From contig NC_083587.1 of the NCBI RefSeq assembly GCF_027579695.1, positions 56,249,738 through 56,313,737 on the forward strand: a stretch of DNA of 64,000 bases, given 5' to 3'. This DNA is from Neoarius graeffei. Lineage: Eukaryota > Chordata > Actinopteri > Siluriformes > Ariidae. The notes beneath the pieces were generated by a model. It was not told the origin of the DNA. It saw only the letters and a program-made list of their open reading frames with translations, and did no database searches. The translations under genes and the position numbers were made by a program. This document shows, piece after piece, positions 7,412 through 64,000 of the stretch. Every line of letters starts with the position of its first letter. Positions within the stretch are counted from its first letter, which is position 1.

Positions 7412-8040
7412 TAAAAAATGAAGAGGATACTGGAAAATTATTTGTAGAAAAAATTAAAAAAAAGATTAATGATTAACGCCAACACTTGTGGAAAAAAGAC
7501 TCGTCGCAAACAACTCGGAAACCAGGAAGTGCGTAGCACAGAATGCCATATCTAAATCTGGTAAGACCAAGTCGACAAGTCTGCAGCGAGACACAGGATT
7601 CCCATGTGGGTGTTAAAGGAATATAATGAGGTGTTAGCACCTGTACTGATGCACCTCTTTAACTGATATTGTACGCTGGATGCTTTCCTATCCAGTGGAA
7701 AGACTGAGTAGTAGTATCAAAGTAAACTCCACAGTTCCCTTAGGATTTCTGATGGATATCCTTGCTGAGCAGTACAGACAATATAAATGTATGAAGCAAT
7801 TATTAAAAAAAAAAAAGCCCTCCTTGCCTGAGGAAATTGGATCAGCTGGCTTTGTCTGTCTCTGCCACTACAAATGAATTACTTGAACCTTACTTGAACC
7901 GTTACTATTGTTTATGGAACAATAAGTAATTTATACAACCACTGAGTCACACCAAAATAATCAATCATCCTTTTGTTTTCAGGGATTTTAAATTATAAAG
8001 ATGAAGTTTTATTGATGTTGGTTCTTCTTAGTATTGTGAT
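7412..8040. other. No recognisable gene
   Basis: Contains A-tracts and short frames only. I see no domain, RNA gene or terminal repeat. Confidence 0.4.
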
Positions 8041-8600
8041 ATTTAAGAGTTATTCCACAAAATCAAGTCATACATGAGCTGATACACACCTCGTCGACTA
8101 TAACCCACGTACGACGAGATTGAGTAGAATAACTATTTTCTTCTATCCACATTCACTGGATTTTGAGAAACAGAGTCTCATCTCATCTCATTATCTCTAG
8201 CCGCTTTATCCTGTTCTACAGGGTCGCAAGCAAGCTGGAGCCTATCCCAGCTGACTACGTCCGAGAGGCGGGGTACACCCTGGACAAGTCGCCAGGTCAT
8301 CACAGGGCTGACACATAGACACAGACAACCATTCACACTCACATTCACACCTACGGTCAATTTAGAGTCACCAGTTAACCTAACCTGCATGTCTTTGGAC
8401 TGTGGGGGAAACTGGAGTACCCGGAGGAAACCCACGCGGACACAGAGAGAACATGCAAACTCCGCACAGAAAGGCCCTCGCCGGTGACAGCGCTAACCAC
8501 TACACCACCCCGCCCCGAGAAACAGAGTGTTTTTAAAATATTTTTTGCAAATTCAATAAATAAAATCTTTATACAAAACATCTAACAAAATGTTGCCAGG
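8041..8600. mobile_element. Repeat related to the 58410-59835 family, split by a V-SINE
   Basis: Sequence 8045-8176 (gttattccacaaaatcaagt through tatccacattcactggattt) and 8517-8590 (aaattcaataaataaaatc) matches the left end of the element at 58412-58620 nearly word for word. The two parts are separated exactly by the V-SINE at 8177-8516, so the SINE is the younger insertion. Confidence 0.75.
8177..8516 (-). mobile_element. V-SINE, with 12-bp target duplication
   Basis: Reverse-oriented tRNA-derived SINE of the V-SINE (DANA/Mermaid-like) superfamily. The conserved core (tgggtttcctccgggtgctc on its own strand) and the 3' end made of gagat/gatga units are present. Target duplications gagaaacagagt lie at 8165-8176 and 8517-8528, proving retroposition. 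The tRNA-like head is partly degraded (box B region shortened). Confidence 0.93.
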
Positions 8601-12416: not shown

Positions 12417-14256
12417 TACGTGTCTGTATTTTTACCTGGTGTTCTGTGTTCAAAGCAAACCGGTTTAGCAGCCTTGGTTTTTGTAGTCATTTTGCATGTG
12501 GATATATTTGCTTAGCAGGAACAGCTCCTGTTACTTTGTTGAACCTCCCTCTGGTAACTCTCATCAGATGTAGAGATATAGTAGGAACTTCCACTGAAAA
12601 TTGATGGCTTATTATAAATTTCCTTGTAAAGTTGAGATTAGTACTGTACATGCTGACGATCTCTTCTGAATTCAACCCATTGTGGCTTTTCAAAGCCTCA
12701 AGCCTTGTCATATCCCCATACCTATTGAATTTAATGAAACAATGATGACTGTTTTAATATTGCGGTCAAAAGTTATGAAATTTCTCAGCATTTTTTTTTT
12801 TTTTTACAGTAAGCATGGATGTAATTCTGGCAGGGACGGACTGAGACCAAAAAACGGCCCTGGACTTTCCCCCCAAATAGGCCCACTATACTATAGTATA
12901 CTATACTATAGTGCTATAGTAAAGTGCTATAGTGGTATACTGTCTGTCATAACAAAACCCACACCGATGAACTATTTTCATAACATTTTTTTTTTTTGTC
13001 ATAACAAAACCCATTTACAAATTAACAGGTTTTTGGGCTTTTGCTGGGGGTGGTAACTGAAAAACTGCTCCAGGCTGTAACTGTCTGAACTCGGGTGGCT
13101 GAAATATTGGGGCACTGATTCCTCATTCTGGCACTTTCCTGGACTCTCCCTGTCATCTTCTGAGCTGCCACTATCTTCAACCTGAATCAACAAACAGTTG
13201 AAAAGATGAAGTTGGATGCTAATCCTATTGTTGATTATATCTAAACTATGCAATGGCATCTAGGAAAACCCTTCACACTGTGCACTGACATATGCTTGAT
13301 TAACATTTAATAGTATTATTTGGAATGACAGCCTTTAAACCTGTACTTATACCTCAAAATTCTATTTTTAAAAACCAGCCAAAACTTTGGATAGACATAG
13401 CATTTGATACCTAGGCTACAGACAAGAAGAATAAAACAGATTTGGAGGTTTTTCCTAAATCCCAATTACATTTTTAGCCTTTTAGGTCTATTCTGTGTAA
13501 GAATTAGCCTGCTTGACACATTTTATAGTTTTAATATTATGCTGATTTTTTTGGTAGGTAAGCCTGACAAACAGATCTAAAATTAGGCTATTAACAAATT
13601 GCACAATGCAGTGCTGCTGTGATTAGTTATGATACCATTCAACCAATCATCCTTCAAACAACATTTGTAGCCTATTCCACAGACATTCCACCACGCACCA
13701 CGAAAGAGAAGACAAAGATAAATAGTGCCAAAATGGAAAACCCTTCTCCCCCTCAAACTTTTGGTTAATGATAGGCTAGAGCTTTGGTTCTCTTGAACGT
13801 AAAGAGCCTAATCTGCATGAATTATGCAGAGGTGAACATATGAAATCGCGGCCATTTGTGCTTGCCTATCTATTTATAATTGGCTTGCTTGATAGTTACG
13901 TGTTTGTTTTGACAGCAATAAACCACATATTTCTCATCATCACACCGCAAATCCAGCCAATAGAAGATTGGCCTACTATGAGAGGGGTCTATGAGTGGCC
14001 TTTACGTAACCTGTTTTATGCTATGGTTTTATGTCGTTGTCACTTACCGGTACCTCCTCCTCTGGTGAAATTCCCTCAGCTGCCTGCCCCTCATCATGAC
14101 TATCATCATCAGCATGTGGTTGGTCAGGTTGGATGTCCACCTGGTTCTCAGTCTCGCTCGGTGATAACGTGACATGAACGTTACTGCTGCTGCTTGCAGT
14201 TGCACTGCTGCCAAAAAGCTCTGTGAGCTTTCTAAAGCTTTCATAAGTCAAACAAG

Positions 14257-17223
14257 ATGGCGGCGCACGTGGTTGCAGCGGCTTACGGCTCTCCTTTTCA
14301 GTGCTCTTTTTTTTGTTTGTTTTTGTATTTCTTTCTTGCTTGTTTGTGCAACATCAGTTCTGCAAACATCCAGTACACCCGCCAGACACTTTTAGCCATC
14401 GGTGACCAACATCAGGCATCTGTTTCGAGCGACTTTCTCTTCACGCATAACATCCCAGATGACATAGCGAGACCGCCGGGCTCTCTGTGGATTGTTGTCG
14501 GGTCTAGGAGGCAGCACAGATGGAGGAGGGAGAGGAAGCAGAAGCAGGGCTGCAGGTCCAGTGCTACGCTAAGGCTAAGAAAACAACCACACAAGCCACC
14601 TCTACCGAGCCTGTATCTCTCCAATGCCAGATCCCTGGTGCATAAAATGGATGATCTGGAATTACAACTCGCTGGAAATCGCTATGTTGGGGACTGCTGT
14701 GTTTTAATTATCACAGAAACCTGGCTTCATCCAGAAATACCCGATGCTAGCTTGCAGCTAGCAGGCCGCACTCTGCTCCGCTGGGATAGGAATGTGAACT
14801 CCGGTAAGAGCAGAGGGGGAGGGCTCTGTATTTACGTGCATGATAATTAGTGTAACAACGGAACAATTATAGATAAACACTGTTCCCCAGACCTCGAGTA
14901 CATGTCTGTAAGATGCCGGCCTTTTTTTCTACCGAGAGAGCTAACTGTAGTGATTGTCACAGCTGTGTATATTCCACCTGACGCCTGTGTAAACACAGCG
15001 CTCTCTCTCCTGCTGAACACCGTTAACAAACAGCAGCGGGCCCACCCTGACGGTGTTCACATAATTGCAGGAGACTTTAATAAGGCCAACTTGAAGACTG
15101 TACTGCCCAAGTTTTACCAACATGTTAAGTGTTCTACTAGAGGGGAGAACACTCTGGATCATGTTTATTCTAACATCAAGCACGCGTACAGAGCCATACC
15201 CCTCCCCCACCTCGGCCAGTCAGACCATCTTTCCCTCCTGCTCTCCCCAGCCTACACCCCCCTCAGACACAGAGCCAGGCCCACCACAAGGACTATCACA
15301 ACCTGGCCTGACAACACACTCTCCAAACTACAGGACTGCTTTAAACAGACAGATTGGGACTTATTTGAACACCAGGAGCTGGAGACATTCACAGGAACGG
15401 TGCTGGACTATATCAAGTTCTGCATCGGGAATGTGACGGTGGATAAAAACATCCGGGTCTTCCCAAACCAGAAACCCTGGATGACCAGCCAGGTCCGCTC
15501 ACTCCTCAGGGCTCGCGATGCTGCCTTCAGGTCAGATGATAGAGCTCTGTACAGAGCTGGTCGAGCTGATCTGAAAAGAGGAATAAATAAAGCCAAGGCG
15601 GACCACAGGCTGTGCATAGAGTCCCACCTGTCCAGCAACAACACACGGGAGGTGTGGCAGGGCATTCAGGACATCACAAACTTCAGAGACTGTGATGTGC
15701 CAACAGGAGACTGGAGTGCGCTGCTAGCAGAGGAGCTAAATCGCTTCTTTGCTTGCTTTGAAACATCTCAGCAGCACTCATCTGCTCCTGCCCTGCCCCC
15801 ACCACTACACAGTTCCTACACCACTCCTTTCACTGTACAGGAGCACGATGTCAGACGGGTGCTCCTGGCAGTGAACCCGAAGAAAGCTGCCGGCCCAGAT
15901 GGTGTACCTGGTAAGGTGCTCAGAGCGTGCGCCCACCAGCTCGCCCCTACCTTCACCAGGATCTTTAACCTCTCCCTGGCTCAGGCAGTCATCCCGCCCT
16001 GCCTAAAATCTGCAACAATAATCCCAGTGCTGAAGAAGTCTCCCATCACCAGCCTGAATGATTACCGTCCTGTGGTCCTCACCCCTGTAATCATGAAGTG
16101 CTTCGAGAGACTAGTTCTTCAGCACATCAAGGACCACCTCCCCCCAGACTTCGACCCCTACCAGTTCGCATATCGCAGAAACAGATCCACAGAGGACGCC
16201 ATTGCCGTAGCTCTCCACTCTGTGCTAAATCACCTAGAGCAGCAGCAGAGCTACGTCCGCATACTCTTTGTGGATTACAGTTCAGCTTTTAATACAATAA
16301 TCCCAGACATCCTTATTAGAAAACTGGACACTCTCGACCTCCCCCCTCTCACATGTGCCTGGTTAAAGGACTTTCTTACTAACCGGCCCCAGACTGTGAG
16401 ACTTGGCCCCCACTTCTCTTCCACCTGCACGTTGAGCACCGGCTCTCCACAGGGCTGTGTGCTGAGCCCCCTCCTGTACTGCCTCTCCACCCACGACTGT
16501 AGTCCGACCCACAACAACAACAACCTTATCGTCAAGTTTGCTGATGACACCACAGTGGTTGGACTCATCTCAAAGGGAGACGAGGCAGCCTACAGAGAGG
16601 AGGTCCTGAAGTTGGCAGCCTGGTGTTCAGAAAATAACCTTGCTCTGAACACAAAGAAAACCAAAGAGCTCATTATTGACTTCAGGAAGCACAGCACCGA
16701 CCTAGCCCCCCTCTACATCAACAATGTGTATGTGGAGAGGGTCCACACCTTCTGGTTTCTCGGTGTCCTCATCTCCGCCGACATCTCCTGGTCAGCAAGC
16801 ATTACAGCAGTCATTAAGAAGGCTCAGCAGCGGCTACACTTCCTGAGAGTCCTCAGGAAGTACAACTTAAGCTCCAACCTGCTGCTGACCTTCTACCGCT
16901 CATCCATCGAGAGCCTGCTGACGTACTGTTTTACAGTATGGTATGGCAGCTGCACTGCTGTAGACAGGGAGAGGCTCCAGAGGGTAGTTAAGGCAGCACA
17001 GAAGATCATTGGCTGCCCTCTCCCCTCCCTGATGGACATTTACACCTCCCGCTGCCTTAGCAGAGCTAAGAATATTATCAAGGACAGCTCCCACCCTGGC
17101 TTTGATCTATTCGACCTGTTGCCCTCAGGGAGGTGCTACAGGTGCATCAGGACAAAGACAAATCGATTAAAAAACAGCTTCTTTCCAAAAGCCATAACCG
17201 CCCTGAACTCGGATATGCTCTGA
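14257..17223 (+). pseudogene. LINE ORF2 (endonuclease + reverse transcriptase), single premature stop
   Basis: The reading frame runs 989 codons with one interruption, TAG at 14848-14850 (after YVHDN). Domains: APE-type endonuclease (NARSL near residue 122, ITETWL, IAGDFN, and the terminal SDH in LGQSDHLSL); linker with NPKKAAGPDGVPG; reverse transcriptase palm with LFVDYSSAFNTII, SPQGCVLSPLLY and the catalytic FADD at 16537-16548; C-terminal block LLPSGRCYRCI...RLKNSFFPKAI. All visible catalytic motifs are intact. The first ATG is within the YY1-like motif, so the true start may be further in. No separate ORF1 is present. It encodes the machinery of target-primed reverse transcription and could act in trans only if the stop were read through. 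Confidence 0.92.
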
Positions 17224-22485: not shown

Positions 22486-22837
22486 CTCATTCTCATCTCA
22501 TTATCTCTAGCCGCTTTATCCTGTTCTACAGGGTTGCAGGCAAGCTGGAGCCTGTCCAGCTTGGTACACCCTGGGCAAGTCACCAGGTCATCACAGGGCT
22601 GACACTTAGACAACCATTCACACTCACATTCACACCTACGGTCAATTTAGAGTCACCAGTTTACCTAACCTGCATGTTTTGGACTGTGGGGGAAACCGGA
22701 GCACCCTGAGGAAACCCATACGGTAACGGGGAGAACATGCAAACTCCGCACAGAAAGGCCCTCATCGGCCACGGGGCTTGAACCCGGACCTTCTTGCTGT
22801 GAGGTGACAGCGCTAACCACTACACCACTGTGCTGCC
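22486..22837 (-). mobile_element. V-SINE with 11-bp target duplication
   Basis: Reverse-oriented and slightly truncated in its 3' half. Target duplications gccattattat lie at 22475-22485 and 22838-22848; the right one merges with an (att)n run to about 22860. Confidence 0.9.
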
Positions 22838-22864
22838 GCCATTATTATTATTATTATTATACAT

Positions 22865-23238
22865 GGGCGGCACGGTGGTGTAGTGGTTAGCGCTGTCGCC
22901 TCACAGCAAGAAGGTTCGGATTCGAGCCCCGTGGCCGGCAAGGGCCTTTCTGTGCAGAGTTTGCATGTTCTCCCTGTGTCCGCGTGGGTTTCCTCCGGGT
23001 GCTCCGGTTTCCCCCACAGTCCAAAGACATGCAGGTTAGGTTAACTGGTGACTCTAAATTGACCGTAGGTGTGAAAGCGAGTGTGAATGGTTGTCTGTGT
23101 CTATGTGTCAGCCCTGTGATGACCTGGCGATTTGTCCAGGGTGTACCCCGCCTTTCGCCCGTAGTCAGCTGGGATAGGCTCCAGCTTGCCTGCGACCCTG
23201 TAGAACAGGATAAAGCGGCTAGAGATAATGATATGAAA
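22865..23238 (+). mobile_element. V-SINE, full length
   Basis: Begins ggcggcacggtggtgtagtg and ends gataatgatatgaaatga. It lies next to, and opposite in orientation to, the previous SINE, giving a head-to-head pair that could form a long hairpin. A clear target duplication was not seen. Confidence 0.9.
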
Positions 23239-23729
23239 TGAACCTGACGGCCATGTCTGTTTACAAATTATCACAGTCTCTCTCTCGCTAGCATGGAAGT
23301 TTTACATCATGTTGTCTTGACAACCATGCAACATCGTAAACCATATTCAACGCTCATTCTCCACTGGATCGAGTGACGTAATACATGTCGGATAAGCGAT
23401 ATGCTAACAATATTGCATGCTATCGAACCAAACGAACGAAACCCGCTAGAAGGGAATAGAATAGCTACGTGTTTTTATTCCATCGAAAAAGTGTCTTGTA
23501 TGTATTCAACATCGGCTAGATTCTAGCAAATGAACCAGAAACACTTCCCTCTGAAATTTTTTTTTTTTAATTTAGCCAAACTGCAAAAGTTCATTAAACA
23601 CAGTAGGCTAATTAAAAACATTAAGTATTCATTTAAAAAAAAAGTTAAACATGATTTTTGACATTTTTTTTCTGAAAAAGTGAAAGTTCATATCACTTTC
23701 TTAACAGTGATACTTTATTTCAAATAATT

Positions 23730-23733
<4 letters not shown>

Positions 23734-23773
<40 letters not shown>
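23734..23773. repeat. (TA)n microsatellite, left of an hAT insertion
   Basis: About 19 TA units. It continues at 25775-25812, on the other side of the element 23774-25774, so the hAT landed inside one longer TA array. Confidence 0.9.
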
Positions 23774-23776
<3 letters not shown>

Positions 23777-23956
23777 TGTTGCCACCTGTCCCGGTTTTTC
23801 CTGATTGTCCCGGATTTTCATGGTCTGTCCCGGAAAAAAAAAAAAAAAATCCGGGACACTGAATGTCCCGGTTTTTTGTACATAATGGGCAAAATGTGTA
23901 TTTCAACTTGCGAGCCAGCTGAGAACCAGTTCGTTTTTCCGAGCTCGCCGTGCTAA

Positions 23957-25086: not shown

Positions 25087-25771
25087 TCTGTTGCAGTGGT
25101 GAAGGCTGAGCTTCAAGTCAGGCTAAACTTTCAGTTGTCCTGTACTGAGTTCAAGACATTCATTGAAAATCAGCCAGGACTCATAGCAGCAGCAAAGAAA
25201 AACACCAAATATAAATGGAAGATTAGGTAAGGTTTTGGCGAATTAAATGAAGTAGTGTAGTACATACTCCTGTATGTGCCCAGTTATATCAGTTACATGT
25301 CCTCCTATGTATTTGTTTAGCCAAGAGCAGCAGAGGCACAGGCAAGCACAAGCAAAGCACACACCACACTCTAAGCAATCAGGTAAGCTGTTGGACACTA
25401 CACCTTACATTGTTACATTCAGGTATTCTTAGATACAATGAAAAATTATTTTTATTCCACATAAGCAAACAAACAGAACTTAATTATGTATTCCCCTTTT
25501 ACCTGTGCCCACTACTGCCCCCAGGTGTCCACAACCAAAAACTGTTGGAAATAAACCAAAATAATGAAGACCTGCTTTATTATGTAAAGCAATTAACTAA
25601 ACAAATAACTAGCAAAAGCGTCATTTTTACTAATTAGAGCAATACAATTTCAGCGTAGAAGGGCGATTTTTGTCTTGGGTTAGATGTGCGAAGGGCGCCG
25701 TTGCTTACAAGCAAAAAGGTCGATTGGATGGTCGAAATGTCCAGGATTTTTGTCAGACACAGGTGGCAACC

Positions 25772-25814
<43 letters not shown>

Positions 25815-25815
<1 letters not shown>

Positions 25816-32250: not shown

Positions 32251-32627
32251 GCTCCAGACCCTGCCCAGGATAAGTGGTTACGGATAATGGATGGATGTAC
32301 TGTTTACAGACTGTTTCAAAAGTTTTAATCGCATGGTCTGTTTATGAAACTTATAGACTACATGAATGAGAGGTGTGATGCTGAATGAAGTGATGAAAAG
32401 CAGCTGATTTTGTCTGTCAGTTAGCCGTGGAGTTGTAGAGCGCTCTAAAGTTCAGTATGGCTTATAAACAGACTTGCAGTCAGTGATTACGCATTTTCTG
32501 GATAGGGCAATATCACATTCGATCAGGAGGTCCTTCATTCTGCCATGCAAAAGCAAACTGCAGTATCTGCACATTCTGTGAAATTGAGTTGTGTGTATGA
32601 AGTTTAGGTGCCGTATCTGTTCTATTA

Positions 32628-34231
32628 CAACCCCGATTCCAAAAAAGTTGGGACAAAGTACAAATTGTAAATAAAAACGGAATGCAATAATTTACAAATC
32701 TCAAAAACTGATATTGTATTCACAATAGAACATAGACAACATATCAAATGTCGAAAGTGAGACATTTTGAAATCTCATGCCAAATATTGGCTCATTTGAA
32801 ATTTTATGACAGCAACACATCTCAAAGTTGGGACAGGGGCAATAAGAGGCTGGAAAAGTTAAAGGTACAAAAAAGGAACAGCTGGAGGACCAAATTGCAA
32901 CTCATTAGGTCAATTGGCAATAGGTCATTAACATGACTGGGTATAAAAAGAGCATCTTGGAGTGGCAGCGGCTCTCAGAAGTAAAGATGGGAAGAGGATC
33001 ACCAATCCGCCTAATTCTGCGCCGACAAATAGTGGAGCAATATCAGAAAGGAGTTCGACAGTGTAAAATTGCAAAGAGTTTGAACATATCATCATCTCCA
33101 GTGCATAATATCATCAAAAGATTCAGAGAATCTGGAAGAATGTCTGTGCGTAAGGGTCAAGGCCGGAAAACCATACTGGGTGCCCGTGATCTTCGGGCCC
33201 TTAGACGGCACTACATCACATACAGGCATGCTTCTGTATTGGAAATCACAAAATGGGCTCAGGAATATTTCCAGAGAACATTATCTGTGAACACAATTCA
33301 CCGTGCCATCCGCCGTTGCCAGCTAAAACTCTATAGTTCAAAGAAGAAGCCGTATCTAAACATGATCCAGAAGCGCAGACGTCTTCTCTGGGCCAAGGCT
33401 CATTTAAAATGGACTGTGGCAAAGTGGAAAACTGTTCTGTGGTCAGACGAATCAAAATTTGAAGTTCTTTATGGAAATCAGGGATGCTGTATCATTCGGA
33501 CTAAAGAGGAGAAGGACGACCGGAGTTGTTATCAGCGCTCAGTTCAGAAGCCTGCATCTCTGATGGTATGGGGTTGCATTAGTGCGTGTGGCATGGGCAG
33601 CTTACACATCTGGAAAGACACCATCAATGCTGAAAGTTATATCCAGGTTCTAGAGCAACATATGCTCCCATCCAGACGACGTCTCTTTCAGGGAAGACCT
33701 TGCATTTTCCAACATGACAATGCCAAACCACATACTGCATCAATTACAGCATCATGGCTGCGTAGAAGAAGGGTCCGGGTACTGAACTGGCCAGCCTGCA
33801 GTCCAGATCTTTCACCCATAGAAAACATTTGGCGCATCATAAAATGGAAGATACGACAAAAAAGACCTAAGACAGTTGAACAGCTAGAATCCTACATTAG
33901 ACAAGAATGGGTTAACATTCCTATCCCTAAACTTGAGCAACTTGTCTCCTCAGTCCCCAGACGTTTACAGACTGTTGTAAAGAGAAAAGGGGATGTCTCA
34001 CAGTGGTAAACATGGCCTTGTCCCAACTTTTTTGAGATGTGTTGTTGTCATGAAATTTAAAATCACCCAATTTTTCTCTTTAAATGATACATTTTCTCAG
34101 TTTAAACATTTGATATGTCATCTATGTTCTGTTCTGTATAAAATATGGAATTTTGAAACTTCCACATCATTGCATTCCATTTTTATTTACAATTTGTACT
34201 TTGTCCCAACTTTTTTGGAATCGGGGTCGTG
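32628..34231 (+). mobile_element. Tc1/mariner transposon with intact transposase
   Basis: The left terminus caaccccgattccaaaaaag, preceded by TA (32626-32627), is mirrored on the right (ttttttggaatcggggtcg, followed by tgta). An inner copy of the same motif lies near 32817-32840 (acatctcaaagttgggacag) and, inverted, near 34019-34045, giving the IR/DR architecture with about 190 bp between repeats. The inner left copy lacks four A residues present in the others. The right boundary is uncertain by 2-3 bp. Confidence 0.93.
32933..34009 (+). CDS. Tc1-like transposase, complete open reading frame
   Basis: 358 codons without interruption; an alternative start at ATG 32987 ([20 protein letters not shown]) gives 340 residues, the usual Tc1 length, and is my preferred start. 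Order: paired-like helix-turn-helix pair ([40 protein letters not shown]), a basic nuclear-targeting region, then a DDE core. The catalytic residues are all present: D in [13 protein letters not shown] in [14 protein letters not shown] in [13 protein letters not shown]. The GC-rich linker common to the family is altered ([18 protein letters not shown]). The C-terminus [10 protein letters not shown] is normal. It should bind the terminal repeats and cut/paste at TA. It is the best-preserved transposase here and may be recently active; enzymatic competence is inferred. Confidence 0.93.
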
Positions 34232-42900: not shown

Positions 42901-43301
42901 AATTCTATCTAGTATATTGTGATACATACAGGACACTTTTTCGATGAAATAAAAACATGTGTTCTATTCCTTTCTATATAGAATAGTTAGGGTTTTTTTT
43001 TTCTCTTTTTTATCAGACATCTAATTTTTGGGTTTGTTTACCTGACATGTTTCGACGTACAACTTCCGTCTTCCTCAGAGTGTCACCGGATGTTAATTGG
43101 TGACGCATCTTTTATCAGCTGCTGTTTCTGAAGGTGTGGCCTTCCTGTCTGGTTTGACAGGTCGGTCACGCCTTATACTGTCTGTTCGTCCCCTGCAAGA
43201 TGTCACTCCAGGTATGGGAGAGCATGTATGCTCCCTTCTGTATCTTCTGTATGCACAGAAGATAACAAACATCAGCGCTGGATCAGGGAGGCCATAGAGA
43301 A

Positions 43302-44018
43302 GCCACAGCAATAATTACAGATCCACAGGACAAAGAACAGGAGGAACAACATATACAGCACGCACTGAAGGCATGTCAATATCCACAATGGGCAATATCC
43401 AAAGGGGTGGAACAGGTTAAGAACAACAAAACACAGAAGAAAGAGAAAAAACAAACTAACAAACAAGAACACAGGGGAGTAGTTACATTACCATACATCA
43501 GGGGAATAACTGAACGCATTCAAAGAGTAATGAGGAAACGCAACATTAACACACCTGTCAAACCACACACAACACTCCGTCAGATCCTGGTTCACCCCAA
43601 AGACAGAATACATCCGGACAACAGATGCAACACCATATATGAGATTCCATGTAAATTATGCAATAAAACATACATTGGGGAGACAGGAAGGAGTTTCAAC
43701 ACAAGAAAACATGAACATAAGAAAGAGTGCGAAAAGGAGACAGCTATAAGACAAACCCGAACAATAAAAGAAAAGGCACAACAGGAAAATTATATGTCAG
43801 CTATAACAGATCACTGTAAAAGGGAAAATCACATTATGGACTGGGGGAATGCCAGAGTCATCCGCACAGAAGATAACAAACATCAGCGCTGGATCAGGGA
43901 GGCCATAGAGATCCGTAAGCGAAGCCCGAGGACCATCAACCGGGATGAGGGAGCATTCATGCTCTCCCATACCTGGAGTGACATCTTGCAGGGGACGAAC
44001 AGACAGTATAAGGCGTGA
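43302..44018 (+). pseudogene. Penelope GIY-YIG endonuclease, C-terminal part of the polyprotein
   Basis: Open for 238 codons to TGA at 44016, but no start ATG: the frame is entered from the rearranged 5' junction. After a linker (EEQHIQHALKACQYPQWAIS and a lysine-rich run) comes LPYIRGITERIQRVMRKRNI, then the nuclease. The GIY-YIG equivalent is TIYEIPCKLCNKTYIGETGR, with catalytic R in GRSFNTRKHEHKK, a later ENYMSAITDHCKRENHIMDW segment and the acidic residue in WIREAIEIRKR. The CKLC pair is the zinc-knuckle-like insertion of this clade. In the family this domain nicks target DNA for retrotransposition. The catalytic motif itself looks intact. Confidence 0.88.
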
Positions 44019-49355: not shown

Positions 49356-49700
49356 CACTTCCTCTGACATCATGTCAGGACCTGGTGCCCATTCAGTTCC
49401 AGAGCTCCCCTGTGCAAGTGGCGACAGGAAAAAATGCTGTGTTTACAGTGCAGACCATCTCCAATATCTTCTCCATCACGTGGCTCGCTCCCAGAGGAGA
49501 CACTCTGGGCCAGTGGATCAACAACCAGGCTGTGATTAATCCGATCGCCCAGTACCTTGACAGAGTTAGCATCAGTGCCACCCAGCTCACGATCCGCAGC
49601 AGCCAACTCAGCGATGCTGGAAACTACACGGTCACTGTAACACCGTTCGCTACCACTGGACTGGCCACCAACTCGCTCTCTGTCGCTTTGCTGGTTTACG
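49356..49700 (+). CDS. Immunoglobulin V-like exon of a CEACAM-like receptor
   Basis: The acceptor (ctctttttcctcag) ends at 49355 and the donor gtaagg begins at 49701. 345 bp, phase 1 at both ends, the rule for immunoglobulin-domain exons. The domain has the V-type layout: strand B NAVFTVQT, core tryptophan in FSITWLA, RVSIS and LTIRSSQLSDAGNYTVTV. Both canonical disulphide cysteines are replaced by valine (FTV; YTV), a feature of CEACAM and HEPACAM N-terminal domains. One cysteine remains near the start (LTSCQ). Predicted role: membrane-distal adhesion domain of a type I surface protein. The leader exon was not found. CEACAM versus HEPACAM-type cannot be settled from this exon alone. Confidence 0.85.
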
Positions 49701-55142: not shown

Positions 55143-55409
55143 TTGCGGTGGGTCCAGTGAGTCTGTTCGTACCCTCTGTGACTATAGAAGGTGGCAACGC
55201 GACCTTAACCTGCAGCTGGACTTCAGGCACCAACACCAGCGTCACGTGGGGTAAAGATAGCACCAATCTTCCCTCAGACTCTCGCTTCTTCATCGATGCT
55301 GGGTCTCTGAATATCAACCCGGTGAACAGGAACGATGCCGGAGAATACAGCTGCACCGTCAGCAACCCCATCAGCAGCCAGACTGCCACAGCAAGCCTCA
55401 CTGTTTACT
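55143..55409 (+). CDS. Immunoglobulin C2-type exon of the CEACAM-like receptor
   Basis: Acceptor ...gttcctgtgaag ends at 55142; donor gtgagt starts at 55410. 267 bp, phase 1-1. The domain has the full disulphide pair (NATLTCSWTSG; AGEYSCTVSN), the core tryptophan (SVTWGKD) and the DAGEYSC signature. Joined to the next exon the junction reads SLTVY-YGPD, wording typical of CEACAM domain borders. Potential N-glycosylation sites: NAT and NTS. Confidence 0.85.
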
Positions 55410-56009
55410 GTGAGTCCGACATGGATCTTTGTATAAGGATACTCAAGACAAAATGGGATATGACCAAAGTAAAGAATTAAGGTGGGCTGTGATACGTGTG
55501 TTCCTAGAACAGCATGTCCCGAGGTATATTTTCCCCCTTATACCGCAGCAATTTGGATTTTTTTTTTAATTAAAAGTGATCACATTGTACATTCTAAAAT
55601 GTACAACACAATTTTCATGAGGTTTCCTAAAACAAAGTTGGGCATCCCAGCGAATTTGCTGTGACTATAGAAACGGTAACGTATTAATATAAACCAAATG
55701 GCTGAACTATTGTCAGAGCTGCTGATAATTAACAGTTATTCACCGAAGGCGAGACAAAGTCGAGGTTGTTATTCACCGAGCCTGAGGCAGATAATTGTTT
55801 TCGTATTTTTCACATATCCCACAATCCGCTGCGCGGCTGGGAACGTCCGGTGGCCAGGCCCAGGCTGCTGATCACGGTACAAAAACCAATATTGGGTGAT
55901 ATAATCACTTTCGATGTTCAAATATCGGATGTTCAAATATTATTACAGGTTTACCTGGTCTTTCAAGATTAATACTGCTCGAAATGATTGCACATTTACA
56001 ATTTGTCAT

Positions 56010-57467
56010 CAATGTCTTGCAAAAGTATTTATCCCCCTTGGTGTTTGTCCTGTTTTGTCGCGTTACAAGCTGGAATTAAAATGGATTTTTGGAGGGTTAG
56101 CACCATTTGATTTACACAACATGTCTACAACTTTAAAGGTGCAGATTTTTTTAAAATTGTGACATGAACAATAAGACCAAGAAACAGAAATCTGGAGTGT
56201 GCATAGGTATTCACCCCCCAAAATCAATACTTTGTAGAGCCACCTTTTGCTGCAATTACAGCCACTGGGATTTTTGCCCATTCCTCAAGACAAAACTGCT
56301 CCAACTCCTTCAAGTTAGATGGGTTGTGTTGGTGTACAGCAATCTTCAAGTTATGCCACAGATTCTCAATTGGGTTGAGGTCTGGGCTTTGATTAGGCCA
56401 TTCCAAGACATTTAAATGTTTCCCTTTAAGCCACTCTGGACAGTGTAGCTTTAGCAGTCTGTTTTGGGTCATTGTCCTGCTGGAACGTGAACCTTCATCC
56501 CAGTCTCAAACCTCCAGAAATGCCCTGTATTTAGTGCCATCCATCTTTCCTTCAGTCCTTACCAGCTTTCCTGTCCCTGCAGATGAAAAGTATCCCCACA
56601 GCATGATGCTGCCACCACCATGCTTCACTGTAGGAATGGTGTTCGAAGGGTTTACGCCACACATGGCATTTCCCATGATGGCCAAAAAGTTAAATTTTAG
56701 TCTCATTTGACCAGAGAATCTTCTTCCATGTGTTTGGCGAGTCTGCCACATGCTGTTGGGCAAACTCCAAACATGTTTTCTTAAGCAATGACTATTTTCT
56801 GGCCACTCTTCCTTAAAGCCTCGCTCTGTGGAGTGTACGGCTTAAAGTGGTTCTATGGACAGATACTCCCATCTCTGCTGTGGACCTTTGCAGCTCCTTC
56901 AGTGTTATCGTTGGTGTCTTTGTTGCATCTCTGATTAATGCCCTCCTTGCCCGGTCTGTTTTGGTGGGCGACCTTCTCTTGTCAGGTTTGTAGTGGTGCC
57001 ATATTCTTTCCATTTTGCTATAATGGGTTTAATGGTGTTCTGTGGTATATTCAAAGTTTGGGATATGTTTTATAACCCAACCCTGATCTATACTTCTCCA
57101 CAACTTTGTCTCTGACCTGTTTGGAGGCTCCTTGGTTCTCATGTTTGCTTAGTAGTGTAGCAGAGTCAGGGTCCTTCCAGAACAGGTTGATTTATACAGA
57201 CATCATGTGACCCTTTGATTGCAGACAGGTGGATCTTAATCAACTAATTATGTGACTTATGAAGTGAATTGATTGGACCAGCTCTTATTAAGGGGGTGAA
57301 TACTTAAGCACACTCCAGATTTCTGTTTTTTTTTCATCTTATTGTTTGTGTCACAATAAAACTTTAAAGTGGTAGGCATGTTGTGTAAATCAAATGGTGC
57401 TAATCCTCCAAAAATGCAACAAAACAGGACAAACACCAAGGGGGATGAATACTTTTGCAAGACACTG
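56010..57467 (-). mobile_element. Tc1-like transposon, same family as 19944-21531
   Basis: The left end caatgtcttgcaaaagtatt follows gtcat (the TA is mutated); the right end has TA at 57468-57469. It has internal deletions relative to the 19944 copy in both the terminal repeat and the coding region. Confidence 0.9.
56224..57142 (-). pseudogene. Tc1-like transposase, deleted and frameshifted
   Basis: Pieces on the - strand: WHHYKPDKRRSPTK, ALIRDATKTPTITLKELQRS, then [37 protein letters not shown] and AAKGGSTKY. The catalytic site near 56700 reads [12 protein letters not shown] in the open frame, so the WSDETK motif is displaced by a frameshift. The segment between EEWAKIPV and AVIAAKGG lacks about 13 residues. 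Confidence 0.88.
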
Positions 57468-57778
57468 TAAATGTACACTTAATGTCGTTGGCCAGAGTTA
57501 TAGTGCTGAGTCGTTGGAGCATGTATTTTGTGTTAAAACTGCAGAGAGTGAAAATGAAAGGACGATAATATAAGTAAAATACAAGACAAAAACTACCATG
57601 GAATTAGTAACTTGACATATAAAAGCAATCTGATAACATCACATTTCAGCTTGCATCCGATATTTGAACATCGAAACTGATTATATCGCCCAGTACTGGT
57701 GTTTGTACCGTGATCAGCAGCCTGTGCCTGGCCGCCGGAAGTTCCCAACCGCGCAGTGGACTGTGGGATGTGTGTAAA

Positions 57779-58071
57779 GCCTAGGTCACAACCGGACGTA
57801 CGATTTTTTGGCCGTGTGATTTTTGGCATTTCCCAAATCGCTGCGTTTTTTTTTTTTTTTCGTGGAGAAAGACGCACGTTGGCCGTAAGTTTGTCTTGCA
57901 ACCTGAAAAAAACGTAAGCGCCCGTAGAGTTTGTTTGACATGACAAAGAACCTCTGCGGCCGGTCTGCGGCTCGAAAATCAGCACGTCACACACGTGCCC
58001 TCCGTGCGTTTCTTGCGTTTTTTGCACGTAGACCGGCCGTAGGAGCACGTACAGCCGGTTGTGACCGAGGC
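57779..58071. mobile_element. MITE with ggtcacaaccgg ends
   Basis: Left gcctaggtcacaaccggacg and right, inverted, gcctcggtcacaaccggctg are terminal repeats; the interior has gccgta/tacggc and cgtagac repeats. No ORF; target duplication unclear. Confidence 0.72.
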
Positions 58072-58239
58072 TTCAGGGGCGAATAAATACACAGGTGATT
58101 TTATTTAAAAAAATTGTATTAAAAAATTGATTTCAAACTTCAGAAGCGTCATGCAAATGTAATAATGGCACAGCACAGACTTGTCACTTATCTACGCCGA
58201 GTCACATAAAATACTTTGTTTTGAAATTGATAAAATAAA

Positions 58240-58362
58240 TCACAAACCTTTGAATAGTTTTAGACCAAACTTTGTAGCATCTTTAGTGCTTTTAGGAACA
58301 GCATTTTCTTTCATCATGTGTAATTCTTCCTCACTCACAGTGACGATGCGATTGCCCGCCAT
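58240..58362 (-). pseudogene. KIAA1958-like (Crypton-derived) N-terminal remnant
   Basis: ATG at 58362 on the - strand opens MAGNRIVTVSEEELHMMKEN, then AVPKSTKDATKFGLKLFKGL and a stop. VSEEE..MKENAVPKSTKDATKFG.KLFK is strongly like the start of fish KIAA1958-like proteins, which descend from Crypton tyrosine recombinases. Only this first segment is present. Confidence 0.7.
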
Positions 58363-58411
58363 TTTGCCAAGTCACTCGAGGTGATGGATCGAGAGATTTA
58401 GACTATTTAAC

Positions 58412-59835
58412 AGTTATTCCACGAAATCGAGTCGTACATGAGCTGATAGCCGAAGGTGTGTGTAGCATTGTGTTGTCTATAAGCCATGTATGATGAGATC
58501 TAATGGAATAATTGTTTTATTCTATCCACATTCACTGGATTTTGAGAAACTGAGCTTTTTTTTTTTTTGCAAATTCGTTAAATAAAAACTTTATACAAAA
58601 CGTCTGACAAAATCATTTCCACATAGAATGTAAACAAACCGGCGAATTTGTGAAAAATTCGATTATAATAATAATAATTCTTGAAAAATAAAAAAAAAGA
58701 TACTTTCCATATTTTGTTTTTGATTTTTTTTAGGGTTTTGTTTTCGAGTCGAGTTTTTATTTCGTCCTCGGTTGGTTCAGCAACACGCTCTGCCATTTTG
58801 TTTTTCTCTGCTCATGGTATATGAGCTGATAGATATGGAATCAATTTTGTGCCAAAATGTTCATACAATACTTTTGAAATATCAAACAAAAACGACAAAT
58901 CAAAATACAAAAAAAGGAAAAAAAAGCCAATTTTTTTAGACTGGCAAACAAATTATTCGTGTAATCGTGCAAAATATCAGTCTATTACTCTTCAGAAACC
59001 TTTTATTTTTGTTCTGCGTCTTTCTCATCTTGTTTGATGTAATTTATTTTGGTTGCGATTCCAGCTTTCTCGTTTGCGCTCCCTGACTTTTTTGCTTGCA
59101 GTTTTGGCACAAACTTGACGTGTGGGCGGGCTGTCCAGGAATGCATTCCCATTGGCTAACTTGTGTTTGACTGACAGCTACGCTCAGCCATTCCCTACTC
59201 GGATTCTGGCGGACTGTTTGATGAGTGACCGATCCATTGACGGTAAACGAGGATGGAGTGGACTTCAGTGGCGACTATGATATTGAATTAATTCAACAAA
59301 GTGTAAATTCAATATCATAGTCGCCACTGAAGTCCACTCGATCCTTGTTTACCGTCAATGGATCGGTCACTCGTCAAACAGTCCGCCAGAATCCGAGTAG
59401 GGAATGGCTGAGCGTAGCTGTCAGTCAAACACAAGTTAGCCAATGGTAATGCATTCCTGGACAGCCCACCCACACGTGAAGTTTGTGCCAAAACTGCAAG
59501 CAAAAAGTCAGGGAGCGCAAACGAGAAAGCTGGAATCGCAACCAAAATAAATTACGTCAAACAAAACTGAGAAAGACGCGGAACAAAAATAAAAGGTTTC
59601 TGAAGAGTAATAGACTGATATTTTGCACGATTACACGAATAATTTGTTTGCCAGTCTAAAAAAATTGACTTCTTTTTTTTGTATCTTGATTTGTCGTTTT
59701 TGTTTGATATTTCAAAAGTATTGTATGAACATTTTGGCACAAAATTGATTCCATAGATAGACCAGTAGTAGAGTAGCCAATCGGAGTGCATGACTGATCA
59801 TATCCGGTGAATGTGGATAGAATAATGTTATTTAT
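58412..59835. mobile_element. Crypton-like element containing a 0.92-kb inverted repeat
   Basis: The left end 58412-58620 equals the repeat at 8045-8590. A - strand ATG at 58796 opens MAERVAEPTEDEIKTRLENK, another KIAA1958-like-looking start. The centre is the palindrome 58835-59754. The right flank 59805-59825 (ggtgaatgtggatagaataa) is the inverse of 58510-58535 (ttattctatccacattcact), so inverted symmetry extends beyond the palindrome with part of one arm deleted. Confidence 0.7.
58835..59754. repeat. Near-perfect inverted repeat, two arms of about 450 bp
   Basis: Left arm 58835-59289, right arm 59306-59754, loop 59290-59305 (16 nt). The arm ends next to the loop (tgatattgaatt / aattcaatatca) and at the outer edge (atggaatcaattttg / caaaattgattccat) match exactly. 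In between only scattered substitutions and a few small indels are seen. Transcripts would form a long double strand; cruciform extrusion is possible. Confidence 0.93.
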
Positions 59836-60138
59836 AATGCTTTTTTGAAAACGCTCATCATAAACTGTATTAGTTTCACGGAGACTAGTTCTGATTGAAG
59901 GCAGCTGACTGAAAAATTTCTTCTGAACTTGACTTTATTAAAAACTTTTGTATTGTTAAAGTTGAACTCGGCTTTCAGAGTACGTTTTTAAAGGAGAGGT
60001 TTTTTTTTTTTTAAAGCAAACCTGTATTTTTATCACAAAAATACATATGCTTTAAATATATAGATATGATATTTTTATCATATTGCACACCTTTAGTGAT
60101 GTTAATAATTAATGTGTATAATGTTGTATCTGCTTTAG

Positions 60139-60423
60139 ATGGTCCGGACACCCCTGAGGTGAAGAGCTCGTCCTCTAACTGTGTTGGTGGTGGAGACGCC
60201 ACCATTGGCCAGACAGTCCAGCTCACCTGTACGTCTGTCTCTCTGCCCCCTGCTCTCTTATCATGGCAGTTCAAAGGTGTGCCCCTGACAACCAGCCAGG
60301 CAAACGGTGGCACGCTGAATTTGCAGATTTTTTCCAACAATCAGAGTGGCCAGTACACATGCTCAGCACGTAACAGCATCACAACCAAAACGTCGCAGCA
60401 GCAGACAACCCTCAATGTTGTGG
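60139..60423 (+). CDS. Immunoglobulin C2-type exon, third domain of the receptor
   Basis: Acceptor tatctgctttag ends at 60138; donor gtgagt starts at 60424. 285 bp, phase 1-1, in frame with the previous exon. Disulphide pair VQLTCTSVS and GQYTCSARN; core tryptophan ALLSWQFKG. An extra cysteine in SSNCVGGGDATIGQ precedes strand B, as in several fish CEACAM-like membrane-proximal domains. NQS is a possible glycosylation site. No transmembrane exon was recognised in the remaining 3.5 kb, so the gene continues to the right. Confidence 0.85.
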
Positions 60424-60883
60424 GTGAGTTTTGGCACTGGATCTTCTAGTGATGCTCATGCTGTTTTATTTATTTATTTGTATTACACGACTTTATTTAA
60501 AGCTGTACTGCCTTTCAGATTTTTCAAGTCTAGGCCATAAAAAGAATTTTCCCCGACATCTATTTATTTTTGCTTAGTGGACTGAAAGCTACTGAATTCG
60601 AATCACAGACTTCCAATTTTATGAGATTTTTAAAACAGAACAATTAATGAATTTCAGGCCACGTGGCCCTAAATTCTCCGCTATTTTTTCCTGCTTCACC
60701 ATGACCCAATACAAGATACTACATTCATGCATCACATGGTGGCCTTTCATCGTTCACACAAGGCATTGTGGGATACAAATTTGAAACAGGAGAGAAAAAT
60801 GGAGGATGTGAGTGTGCGAATGAAACGTGAAAGACCGACGACAGTAACGGAAAGCGAGACGAAAAGACGTTATGTTTTATATA
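60424..60883. other. Intron 3 start with a transposon-like ORF remnant
   Basis: Mostly non-coding. At 60799 an ATG opens MEDVSVRMKRERPTTVTESE, which runs into the Tc1 insertion at 60884 and resumes after 62504 as ERKRRTKLINIGGQ. It resembles a basic leader exon of a DNA transposon or duplicated gene; identity unknown. Confidence 0.4.
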
Positions 60884-62504
60884 CAGTGCCTTGAAAAAGT
60901 ATTCATACCCCTTGAACTTTTTCACATTTTTCCACCTTACAACCACGAACTTTAAAAGTTTTTTTATTGAGATTTTATGTGATAGACCAACACAGAGTAG
61001 CACATAATTGTGAAGTGAAACGAAAATGATAAATGGTCTTCAAAATTTTAAATAAAAATCTGAAAAATGTGATGTGCATTAGTATTCAGCCCCCTGTACT
61101 CTGATACCTCTAAATACAATCCAGTGCAATCAACTGCCTTCAGAACTCATCTAATTAGTTAATAGAGTCCTACTGTGTGTAATTTATTCTCAGCATAAAT
61201 ACACTTCTTCTGTGAAGGCCTCAGTGGTTTGTTAGAGAACACTGAAGAACAAACAGCATCATGAAGACCAAAGAACTCACCAGACAGGTCAGGGATAAAG
61301 TTCTGGAGAAGTTTAAAGCAGGGTTAGGTTATAAAAAAAATATCCCAAGCTCTGAACATCTCAAGAAGCACTGTTCAATCCATCATTCAAAAATGGAAAA
61401 AGTATGGCACAACTGCAAACCTACCAAGACTTGGCCATCCACCTAAACTGACAGAGCGAGCAAGGAGAGCACTGGTCAGAGAAGCAGCCAAGAGGCCCAT
61501 GATCACTCTGGAGGAGCTGCAGAAATCCACAGCTCAGGTGGGAGAATCTGTGCACAGGACAACTATAAGTCGTACACTCCACAAATCTGGCCTTTTTGGA
61601 AGAACGGCAAGAAGAAAGCCATTGTTGAAAGACAGGCATAAGAAGTCCCGTTTGCAGTTTGCCAGAAGCCATGTAGGGGACACAGCAAACATGTGGAAGA
61701 AGGTGCTTTGGTCAGATGAGACCAAAGTTGAACTTTTTGGCCTAAATGCAAAGCGCTATGTGTGGCGGAAAACTAACACTGCTCATCACCCTGCCTACAC
61801 ACACCATCCCCACTGTGAAACATGGTGGTGGCAGCATCATGCTATGGGGATGCTTTTCTTCAGCAGGGACAGGGAAGCTGGTCAGAGTTGATGGGAAGAT
61901 GGATGGAGCTAAATACAGGGCAATCCTGGAAGAAAACCTGTTGGAGGCTGCAAAAGACTTGAGACTGGGAAGGAGATTCACCTTCCAGCAAGACAATGAC
62001 CCTAAACATACAGCCAGAGCTACAATGGAATGGTTTAGGTCAAAGAATATTCATGTGTTAGAATGGCCCAGTCAAAGTCCAGATCTAAATCCCATTGAGC
62101 ATCTGTGGCAAGACTTGAAAATTGCTGTTCACAGACGCTCTCCATCCAATCTGGCTGAGCTTGAGCTATTTTGCAAAGAAGAATGGGCAAAAATTTCAGT
62201 GTCTAGATGTGCAAAGCTGGTAGAGACATACCACAAAAGACTTGCAGCTGTAATTGCAGCAAAAGGTGGCACTACAAAGTATTGACGCAGGGGGGCTGAA
62301 TACTAATGCATATCACATTGTTCAGATTTTTATTTGTTTAAAATTTTGAAGACCATTTATCATTTTCGTTTCACTTCACAATTATGTGCTACTCTGTGTT
62401 GGTCTATCACATAAAATCTCAATAAAAAAACTTTTAAGTTCGTGGCTGTAAGGTGGAAAAATGTGAAAAAGTTCAAGGGGTATGAATACTTTTTCAAGGC
62501 ACTG
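60884..62504 (+). mobile_element. Tc1-like transposon, third family
   Basis: TA at 60882-60883 and 62505-62506. Terminal inverted repeats of about 200 bp start cagtgccttgaaaaagtatt and are almost identical at both ends. Length 1,621 bp. Confidence 0.95.
61261..62285 (+). pseudogene. Tc1-like transposase with two frameshifts
   Basis: ATG at 61261 starts MKTKELTRQVRDKVLEKFKA. A frame change near 61335-61385 shifts into KYGTTANLPRLGHPPKLTER and the second DNA-binding subdomain. Another near 61795 (in the AHHPA/THTIPT region) shifts into [20 protein letters not shown]. All three catalytic residues can be read: D in VLWSDETKVEL, D in [13 protein letters not shown] in [13 protein letters not shown]. 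The C-terminus is AAKGGTTKY. It is otherwise complete, so the loss of function is recent. Confidence 0.93.
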
Positions 62505-64000
62505 TATGAAGGAAAGGAAACGCAGGACCAAACTAATAAATATCGGCGGTCAGCGAGCACCTCGGTGTGATCAGCTGTTCGTTTAGCGACAGAATGATGG
62601 AACTGTCAGTGCACGCTCAAAGGTAAACCTGCGCATGCGCACACACAGACGGACTTCCTCTGTCTGCTCGACTGCGCGAAGCGAGCGATTTCATGCACAT
62701 TATTTGCTTTAATCCCCTCAAATTAAATAACTTCCCAGCCACAGAATGGCCTGATATTTTGCGAGATATTCCAGAAATAAACATGTATCACAATGACCAC
62801 ATTTCAGAGGGAACTAAATTTCACCGATTTTATGAAATCGAAAGGCAGTCGAGCTTTAATACTCGGTTCTGATTGGTCAATTACAGTATTCTACAGTCTG
62901 TTATTTCTGAATAGCAGACCGCTGCTACGAACACTGGTCTGATCATAGACTCTGTCGGGCCACACCCAGTCATATCAGTCCAAAGAAAGAAGTCTGGTAA
63001 TTTCAGTTGCTTTAATAATCAAATTTACAACGTCTGCTCATTTGTGACCCCATGTGGCAAAAAAGCGTTACTCCATCAGAAACGTTTTATAAATATAAGT
63101 TTTAATGTTCATTTTAACATGAGCAATGATGCTAAGTAGACTAATCTTTAGAAGGCTGAAGAGATCACTTTCCTATGGATGCAGTCACAGCTGTAGATTT
63201 TAACGTTTTTTTTTTGTTTGTTTTAGCGGAAGCAATAAAATCGCTTTTAATCTCAATATTTTTTGTCAAATTATTGATTTCTTTAGTAAGTAGCTGTGAA
63301 ATATAAGCAGGTAAATTTATAGATTCGCTCTGGAGTCGTGGTTTATTTCGCTGTACATTATCCCATACTTATTTTTCCTTAAATGCTTGACTGGAGAAGC
63401 ACAGTAAGTGAGTTTATTTTTTTCGCGGTCCGGTTTCCATCAAATCCTGCGCTCTGATTGGCTGGCGAGTGGGTCCGTATCCTACGATATGGACATCTGG
63501 TAACTCGCTCGTTCACAACAACAACAACAAACGTAGTAGCATTCTTTTGTCAACATTTATCTTTTTTTTTTAATAAGATTTATTTATGAGATTATCAAAA
63601 ATCTTATAAATTTTTGCCAGCATTTCTCAGGAGAATAGCATTAATTTTACAGCATGGATAGCGATAACGACAGTGTTCACAGCGAAAGCGAGTTTTACTA
63701 CCCTGAGGAAGAAGAAATAAAAGAAAACATTTCAGGAGAAAGCTAAAAACTGTTGCGAACGCTGAGCAAAAACATGGCTGAATCCTGAATGACTCAGTTT
63801 TGTATAAATAGGGGACTACATAGGTGGCAAAATGTAGTTTTTTTTTTTTTGTTGTTTTTTTTTCCTGCCATGGAAGTGCATTTGTTTACCGAGGAGGAAG
63901 CCATTTGCATTACAGTCATGAATGAGGATTAAAAATGGCGGCTTGCCTTGGCTTGGTTTTCCCTTTCGGGCGCTCTCGTTTTCTGTTAGAATTTGGTAAA
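62505..64000. other. Intron-like sequence with repeat fragments, no exon recognised
   Basis: AT-rich. 62860-62935 and 63440-63520 contain ctgattggt and ctgattggctgg (CCAAT-type) surroundings typical of element promoters here. Apart from the small ORF at 63655 no gene, RNA or receptor exon is seen. Confidence 0.45.
63655..63747 (+). pseudogene. Acidic N-terminal leader of a KIAA1958/Crypton-like protein
   Basis: ATG at 63655 gives MDSDNDSVHSESEFYYPEEE, then EIKENISGES and TAA. After the stop the same frame reads KLLRTLSKNMAES. Acidic DSD...SEFYYPEEE leaders precede Crypton-derived domains in fish proteins, so this is a broken first exon of that type. It is the fifth such start in the window and the least certain. 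Confidence 0.5.

What the first reader, a model, noticed from the sequence alone, without database searches (positions are those of the whole stretch)
58835..59754. 0.92-kb near-perfect palindrome
Two arms of about 450 bp around a 16-nt loop differ at only scattered sites. Inverted repeats this long and close are normally unstable, so it is either very young or actively kept homogeneous by gene conversion. It lies in an intron of a likely transcribed gene, so a long dsRNA hairpin and small RNAs are expected. Symmetry extends into the flanks of a Crypton-like element.
Basis: seen in the sequence. Interest (0 to 1): 0.78.

Follow-up and report, generated by a model that had tools for sequence, protein, structure and literature searches.

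The report
Fold-back transposon in fish-like immunoglobulin-gene intron
The long mirror-image sequence is most likely a non-coding "jumping gene" made of two opposed copies of one transposon end, landed in an intron of a fish-like immunoglobulin-type gene; it is a neat example of a known kind of element, not a new genetic system.

Summary
The palindrome is real: 922 bp at 58834-59755, arms of 456 and 450 bp around a 16-nt loop, 437 of 449 aligned positions identical plus three gap events. It looks like one discrete mobile element. Its ends read TATGG...CCATA and a perfect 6-bp direct repeat GATAGA flanks it. Those are the ends (TAYGG..CCRTA; TA..TA) and duplication length described for IS3EU DNA transposons (passages), a superfamily reported in teleosts. 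Best reading: a non-autonomous, fully palindromic (foldback) IS3EU-type element, moved by a transposase encoded elsewhere. The arm differences are evenly spaced and include five CpG-type transitions spread over both arms, which suits separate decay after insertion rather than recent homogenisation. It lies in an intron between two phase 1-1 Ig-domain exons, so a long hairpin is expected if the gene is transcribed; small RNAs are untested. The claimed flank symmetry is a separate 24-nt motif, also found in a related repeat. The genome-wide copy search did not complete (21 tries), and a 210-kb sample held no copy, so copy number, parent element and empty site remain open.

The parts
58828..58833 (.). 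left target-site duplication GATAGA
   Evidence: identical to 59756-59761
58834..59289 (+). left arm of the palindromic element, beginning TATGGAATCAATTTTGTGCC
58846..58857 (+). TTTGTGCCAAAA motif near the left tip; candidate transposase-binding repeat (inferred)
   Evidence: four exact copies in the window, all inside the element
59102..59113 (-). inverted internal copy of TTTGTGCCAAAA in the left arm (within a 16-of-17 match to the tip)
   Evidence: 2 of 300 Markov-resampled sequences score as high or higher (largest 21 against 15 observed)
59290..59305 (.). 16-nt loop; begins AATTCAA, which is repeated at the start of the right arm
59306..59755 (-). right arm, ending CCATA
59482..59493 (+). 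internal TTTGTGCCAAAA copy in the right arm
59732..59743 (-). TTTGTGCCAAAA motif near the right tip
59756..59761 (.). right target-site duplication GATAGA
55143..55409 (+). upstream Ig-domain exon, phase 1-1, donor GTGAGT (other acceptors at 55158 and 55162 also stay open; choice inferred)
   Evidence: Pfam I-set E 1.7e-14 for 55145-55408
60139..60423 (+). downstream Ig-domain exon, phase 1-1, donor GTGAGT
   Evidence: Pfam Ig_3 E 1.1e-11 for 60138-60422; splice frame

Best explanation
The palindrome is a non-autonomous foldback DNA transposon of IS3EU type. Each arm is the same roughly 450-bp transposon end (terminal repeat plus subterminal sequence), so the element is two ends joined head to head with no recognised coding interior. 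Shown: the TATGG..CCATA termini, the perfect 6-bp duplication, the near-identical arms. Inferred: a transposase encoded elsewhere bound both ends, cut the element out and inserted it here, duplicating GATAGA; the palindrome itself arose earlier, perhaps when a parent element was copied or repaired by snap-back at the AATTCAA micro-repeat at the loop. Since insertion the arms have been drifting apart by ordinary mutation. It sits passively in an intron and, if transcribed, would fold into a near-continuous hairpin of about 444 pairs.
For: Ends and 6-bp repeat match the published IS3EU signature (passages). A scan for TAYGG..CCRTA pairs up to 6 kb apart with at least 13 of 15 matching TIR bases and identical 6-bp flanks finds only this place in 64 kb, and none in 40 Markov-resampled windows (the relaxed scan also finds only this place, with 1 hit in the 40). 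IS3EU is reported in one of four teleost genomes of a table whose column heads I did not see, in yellow catfish and in killifishes. TTTGTGCCAAAA is repeated at tip and interior of each arm, as transposase-binding repeats are in the long TIRs of Galileo (abstract). Predicted hairpin: 444 pairs, longest clean helix 106.
Against: No second copy, no parent element and no transposase were found: the genome search did not answer in 21 tries, and a 210-kb sample of the genome (7,553 of it N) gave no match better than a 16-nt one at E 0.21. The boundary is ambiguous by 2 bp: TAGATA|TGG..CCA|TAGATA fits equally and would not show the TA..TA ends. A 6-bp duplication alone also occurs in other superfamilies (Polinton; hAT6 in a reference title shown; Dada recalled).
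Confidence: 0.8

Rival explanations
1. A foldback or TIR-only element of another DNA-transposon superfamily (Dada, hAT6-like or undescribed) with a 6-bp duplication.
For: The superfamily rests on 5 terminal bases, duplication length and TIR length only; no transposase is linked, and the 2-bp shifted frame gives TGG..CCA ends.
Against: TATGG..CCATA with 6 bp is the stated IS3EU pattern; GingerRoot, whose ends are occasionally TG..CA, is grouped with IS3EU there.
Confidence: 0.13
2. A local inverted duplication (replication-fork snap-back or fold-back repair at this locus) unrelated to transposition, possibly kept alike by gene conversion.
For: Short loop with an AATTCAA micro-repeat at the centre; arms 97% alike over aligned columns; no second copy seen so far.
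Against: Exact 6-bp flanking duplication and superfamily-type termini at the very ends of symmetry; evenly spread differences with CpG-type transitions in both arms.
Confidence: 0.04
3. Assembly artefact (one arm duplicated inverted by a read or assembly error).
For: Palindromes are prone to it (recalled); reads were not available.
Against: Arms differ by 12 substitutions and 3 gap events, and a duplication flanks the outer ends.
Confidence: 0.03

Closest known systems
IS3EU (IS3EU/GingerRoot) DNA transposons, non-autonomous families
   Same: TA..TA / TAYGG..CCRTA ends and 6-bp duplications (PMC12730594 and PMC10045372, passages); reported in teleosts (passages)
   Different: No transposase here; nearly the entire element is inverted repeat, which none of the passages I read describes for IS3EU
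Galileo / Foldback elements of Drosophila
   Same: Very long terminal inverted repeats, copies classed as two TIRs only (PMC4168063, passages), repeated transposase-binding sites inside the TIRs (PMC3688188, abstract)
   Different: Galileo belongs to the P superfamily, with 7- or 8-bp duplications in D. willistoni
Palindromic MITEs (recalled, no call)
   Same: Non-coding, hairpin-forming, flanked by a duplication
   Different: Much longer than usual MITEs; multiplicity not shown here

Membership tests
IS3EU DNA transposon | Termini TAYGG..CCRTA (TA..TA) | tested here: met
   TATGG at 58834, CCATA ending at 59755; definition. Met in one of the two boundary frames that fit; the frame shifted by 2 bp gives TGG..CCA
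IS3EU DNA transposon | 6-bp target-site duplication | tested here: met
   GATAGA on both sides; either boundary frame gives 6 bp
IS3EU DNA transposon | TIR longer than 30 bp (stated for the fungal families) | tested here: met
   first 70 bp of the arms identical
IS3EU DNA transposon | IS3EU transposase in the element or in an autonomous partner with the same ends | tested here: inconclusive
   none recognised in the element: 8 of 26 frames scanned with Pfam, no match at a curated cut-off, one frame searched for homologues, none. A partner could not be sought: the genome search did not complete (21 calls)
IS3EU DNA transposon | Multiple dispersed copies | tested here: inconclusive
   no other copy in the window or in 210 kb sampled from a genome whose contigs C1 to C6 each exceed 100 Mb
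Foldback-type element | Long TIRs making up nearly the whole element | tested here: met
   906 of 922 bp lie in the two arms
Gene-converted palindrome | Arms homogenised, differences rare or clustered | tested here: not met
   15 events spread evenly, 5,623 of 10,000 random placements reach the longest interval; CpG-type transitions inferred in both arms

The most novel reading that the evidence does not exclude
The palindromic IS3EU-type element may carry the parent transposon's promoter in both arms (GGGCGGG and ATTGG boxes, read by eye), so that its own transcript, or that of the Ig gene, forms a long hairpin whose small RNAs silence the parent transposon and tune the host gene.
Probability: 0.06. 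Interest if true: 0.6.

Novelty: new member of a known kind. Interest (0 to 1): 0.3.

Why it matters
It turns a puzzling 'unstable' palindrome into a datable transposon insertion. A TIR-only IS3EU derivative would be a useful case for how foldback elements arise outside the P superfamily, and as an intronic hairpin it is a natural substrate for testing editing or small-RNA production in fish. As a biological kind it is ordinary.

Tried and rejected
Coding content: six-frame reading of the palindrome gave 26 stop-to-stop frames of 30 aa or more, the longest 78 aa. Eight of the 26 were scanned with Pfam at E up to 0.1: six had no match and two had weak matches far below the curated cut-off (Glyco_hydro_72, E 0.057; AAA_11, E 0.067). 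One frame was used in a protein search, with no candidate. A 31-aa frame crosses the loop (59225-59317) and could be a remnant of a parent gene; it had no Pfam match. Rfam at gathering scores: one tRNA match, elsewhere in the window. Public collections: no exact match of a terminal 22-mer in viral contigs, of an internal 28-mer in bacterial and archaeal genome contigs, of a host-repeat motif in viral contigs, and no near match of the whole palindrome among plasmids; these misses are expected for animal DNA. Gene conversion, flank symmetry and local inverted duplication were considered and set aside for the reasons given above.

Literature: searches for foldback, palindromic and fish combinations (9, 1, 9, 0 and 1 papers listed), for GingerRoot (one listed) and for IS3EU (5 listed, 35 papers held the term, 30 listed) showed me no described palindromic IS3EU element in the titles and abstract openings listed. 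Six of the IS3EU papers were looked at by term search, in passages only. This is a statement about those searches alone.

Full report
The window looks like teleost DNA (inference from its repeats and genes): Tc1-type transposons, LINE-type reverse transcriptases, many dispersed repeats and an Ig-superfamily gene. Contigs C1 to C6 of the assembly are 109-131 Mb long, which fits a large vertebrate genome; the species was not identified.

Observation. The inverted repeat is present at 58834-59755. Its arms (58834-59289, 59306-59755) align over 449 columns with 437 identities, 12 substitutions and three gap events of 6, 1 and 1 bases. As RNA it folds at -789 kcal/mol against a mean of -214 (sd 9) for 20 dinucleotide shuffles, with 444 pairs and a longest uninterrupted helix of 106 pairs.

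Boundaries. Symmetry stops exactly at TATGG on the left and CCATA on the right, and immediately outside both ends stands GATAGA. Because of the TA step shared by element end and target, a frame shifted by 2 bp (TAGATA with TGG..CCA) fits as well; both give 6 bp, but only the first shows TA..TA ends. Two papers, of which I saw passages, give IS3EU 6-bp duplications, TIRs over 30 bp and TAYGG..CCRTA ends in rust fungi (PMC12730594), and TA..TA ends with usually 6-bp duplications for complete IS3EU families in general (PMC10045372). IS3EU is listed in teleost genomes: 17,838 copies in one column of a four-teleost table whose column heads the passage did not show (PMC4746887), in yellow catfish (PMC9945428, passage) and in killifishes (PMC12763893, passage). 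I recalled the 6-bp duplication of IS3EU before reading these passages; the reading confirmed it and supplied the terminal motif. A scan of the window for this combination finds this one place only; 40 Markov-resampled windows give 0 strict and 1 relaxed hit.

Anatomy. TTTGTGCCAAAA occurs four times in the window, each time in the element: near each tip and, inverted, about 250 bp further in on each arm. The longer match to the tip (16 of 17) is reached or exceeded in 2 of 300 resampled sequences. Repeated transposase sites inside long TIRs are known in Galileo (PMC3688188, abstract), so these are candidate binding sites, by inference. The inner arm is GC-richer (0.495 for 59100-59289 against 0.269 for 58834-58993) and by eye holds GGGCGGG and ATTGG boxes, which could be a promoter remnant. 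No coding relationship was recognised in the frames tested (8 of 26 with Pfam; one by protein search; frames listed). At the centre, AATTCAA begins the loop and begins the right arm; a snap-back at this micro-repeat is a plausible birth mechanism, not a shown one.

Age and maintenance. Nine of 12 substitutions are transitions; five of these are CpG against TpG or CpA, three with the CpG kept in the right arm and two with it kept in the left. If CpG is the older state, both arms have decayed separately. The 15 difference events are evenly spaced (longest interval 88 columns; 5,623 of 10,000 random placements reach it). This gives no sign of recent conversion. K2P 0.027 between arms would mean a few million years at neutral rates of a few per billion sites per year (rate recalled), and is an upper bound if the element was already imperfect when it landed.

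Setting. Three exons on the + strand encode Ig-like domains: 49356-49700, 55143-55409 and 60139-60423. Each can be read with AG/GT borders and symmetric phase 1-1; other borders also stay open, and I chose those with a GTAAGG or GTGAGT donor. Pfam I-set or Ig_3 matches above the curated cut-off support all three. The palindrome lies in the intron 55410-60138, with a Tc1-like element at about 56010-57469. No transcript evidence was available. Upstream of the palindrome, 58404-58613 resembles 8040-8591 (75% and 81% in two pieces), and another partial copy is in L021, so the element probably landed in or beside an older dispersed repeat. Whether the repeat is Crypton-like was not tested.

What is open. 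Copy number, the parent element and the empty site need the genome search that did not complete (21 calls). The 210-kb sample held no second copy, which is compatible with anything from one to many hundreds of copies in a genome of this size. IS3EU membership therefore rests on termini, duplication length and TIR length; the transposase criterion is open. That it works as a transposase-mobilised foldback element is the firmer claim, itself inferred from one insertion.

Noticed in passing
window 22487-23241: A second near-palindrome: two copies of a dispersed ~370-bp repeat lie head to head (85% alike in inverted comparison).
   Followed up: partly
window 32627-34230: Tc1-like element with ~218-nt inverted ends (80% alike) and a 361-aa open transposase frame with DDE_3; possibly active fairly recently.
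   Followed up: no
window 60881-62507: Tc1-like element with inverted ends 96% alike and transposase-like sequence split over two overlapping frames, downstream of the exon at 60139-60423.
   Followed up: no
window 43266-44018: 250-aa open frame without a Pfam match at E 0.001; from recall it looks like a GIY-YIG endonuclease of a Penelope-like retroelement.
   Followed up: partly
window 23733-23789 and 25759-25815: Two inverted copies of a 57-nt stretch (96%) whose surroundings are dense in self-complementary seeds.
   Followed up: no
window 14236-17223: Long LINE-type open frames, 204 and 790 aa, the second with a reverse transcriptase domain.
   Followed up: no
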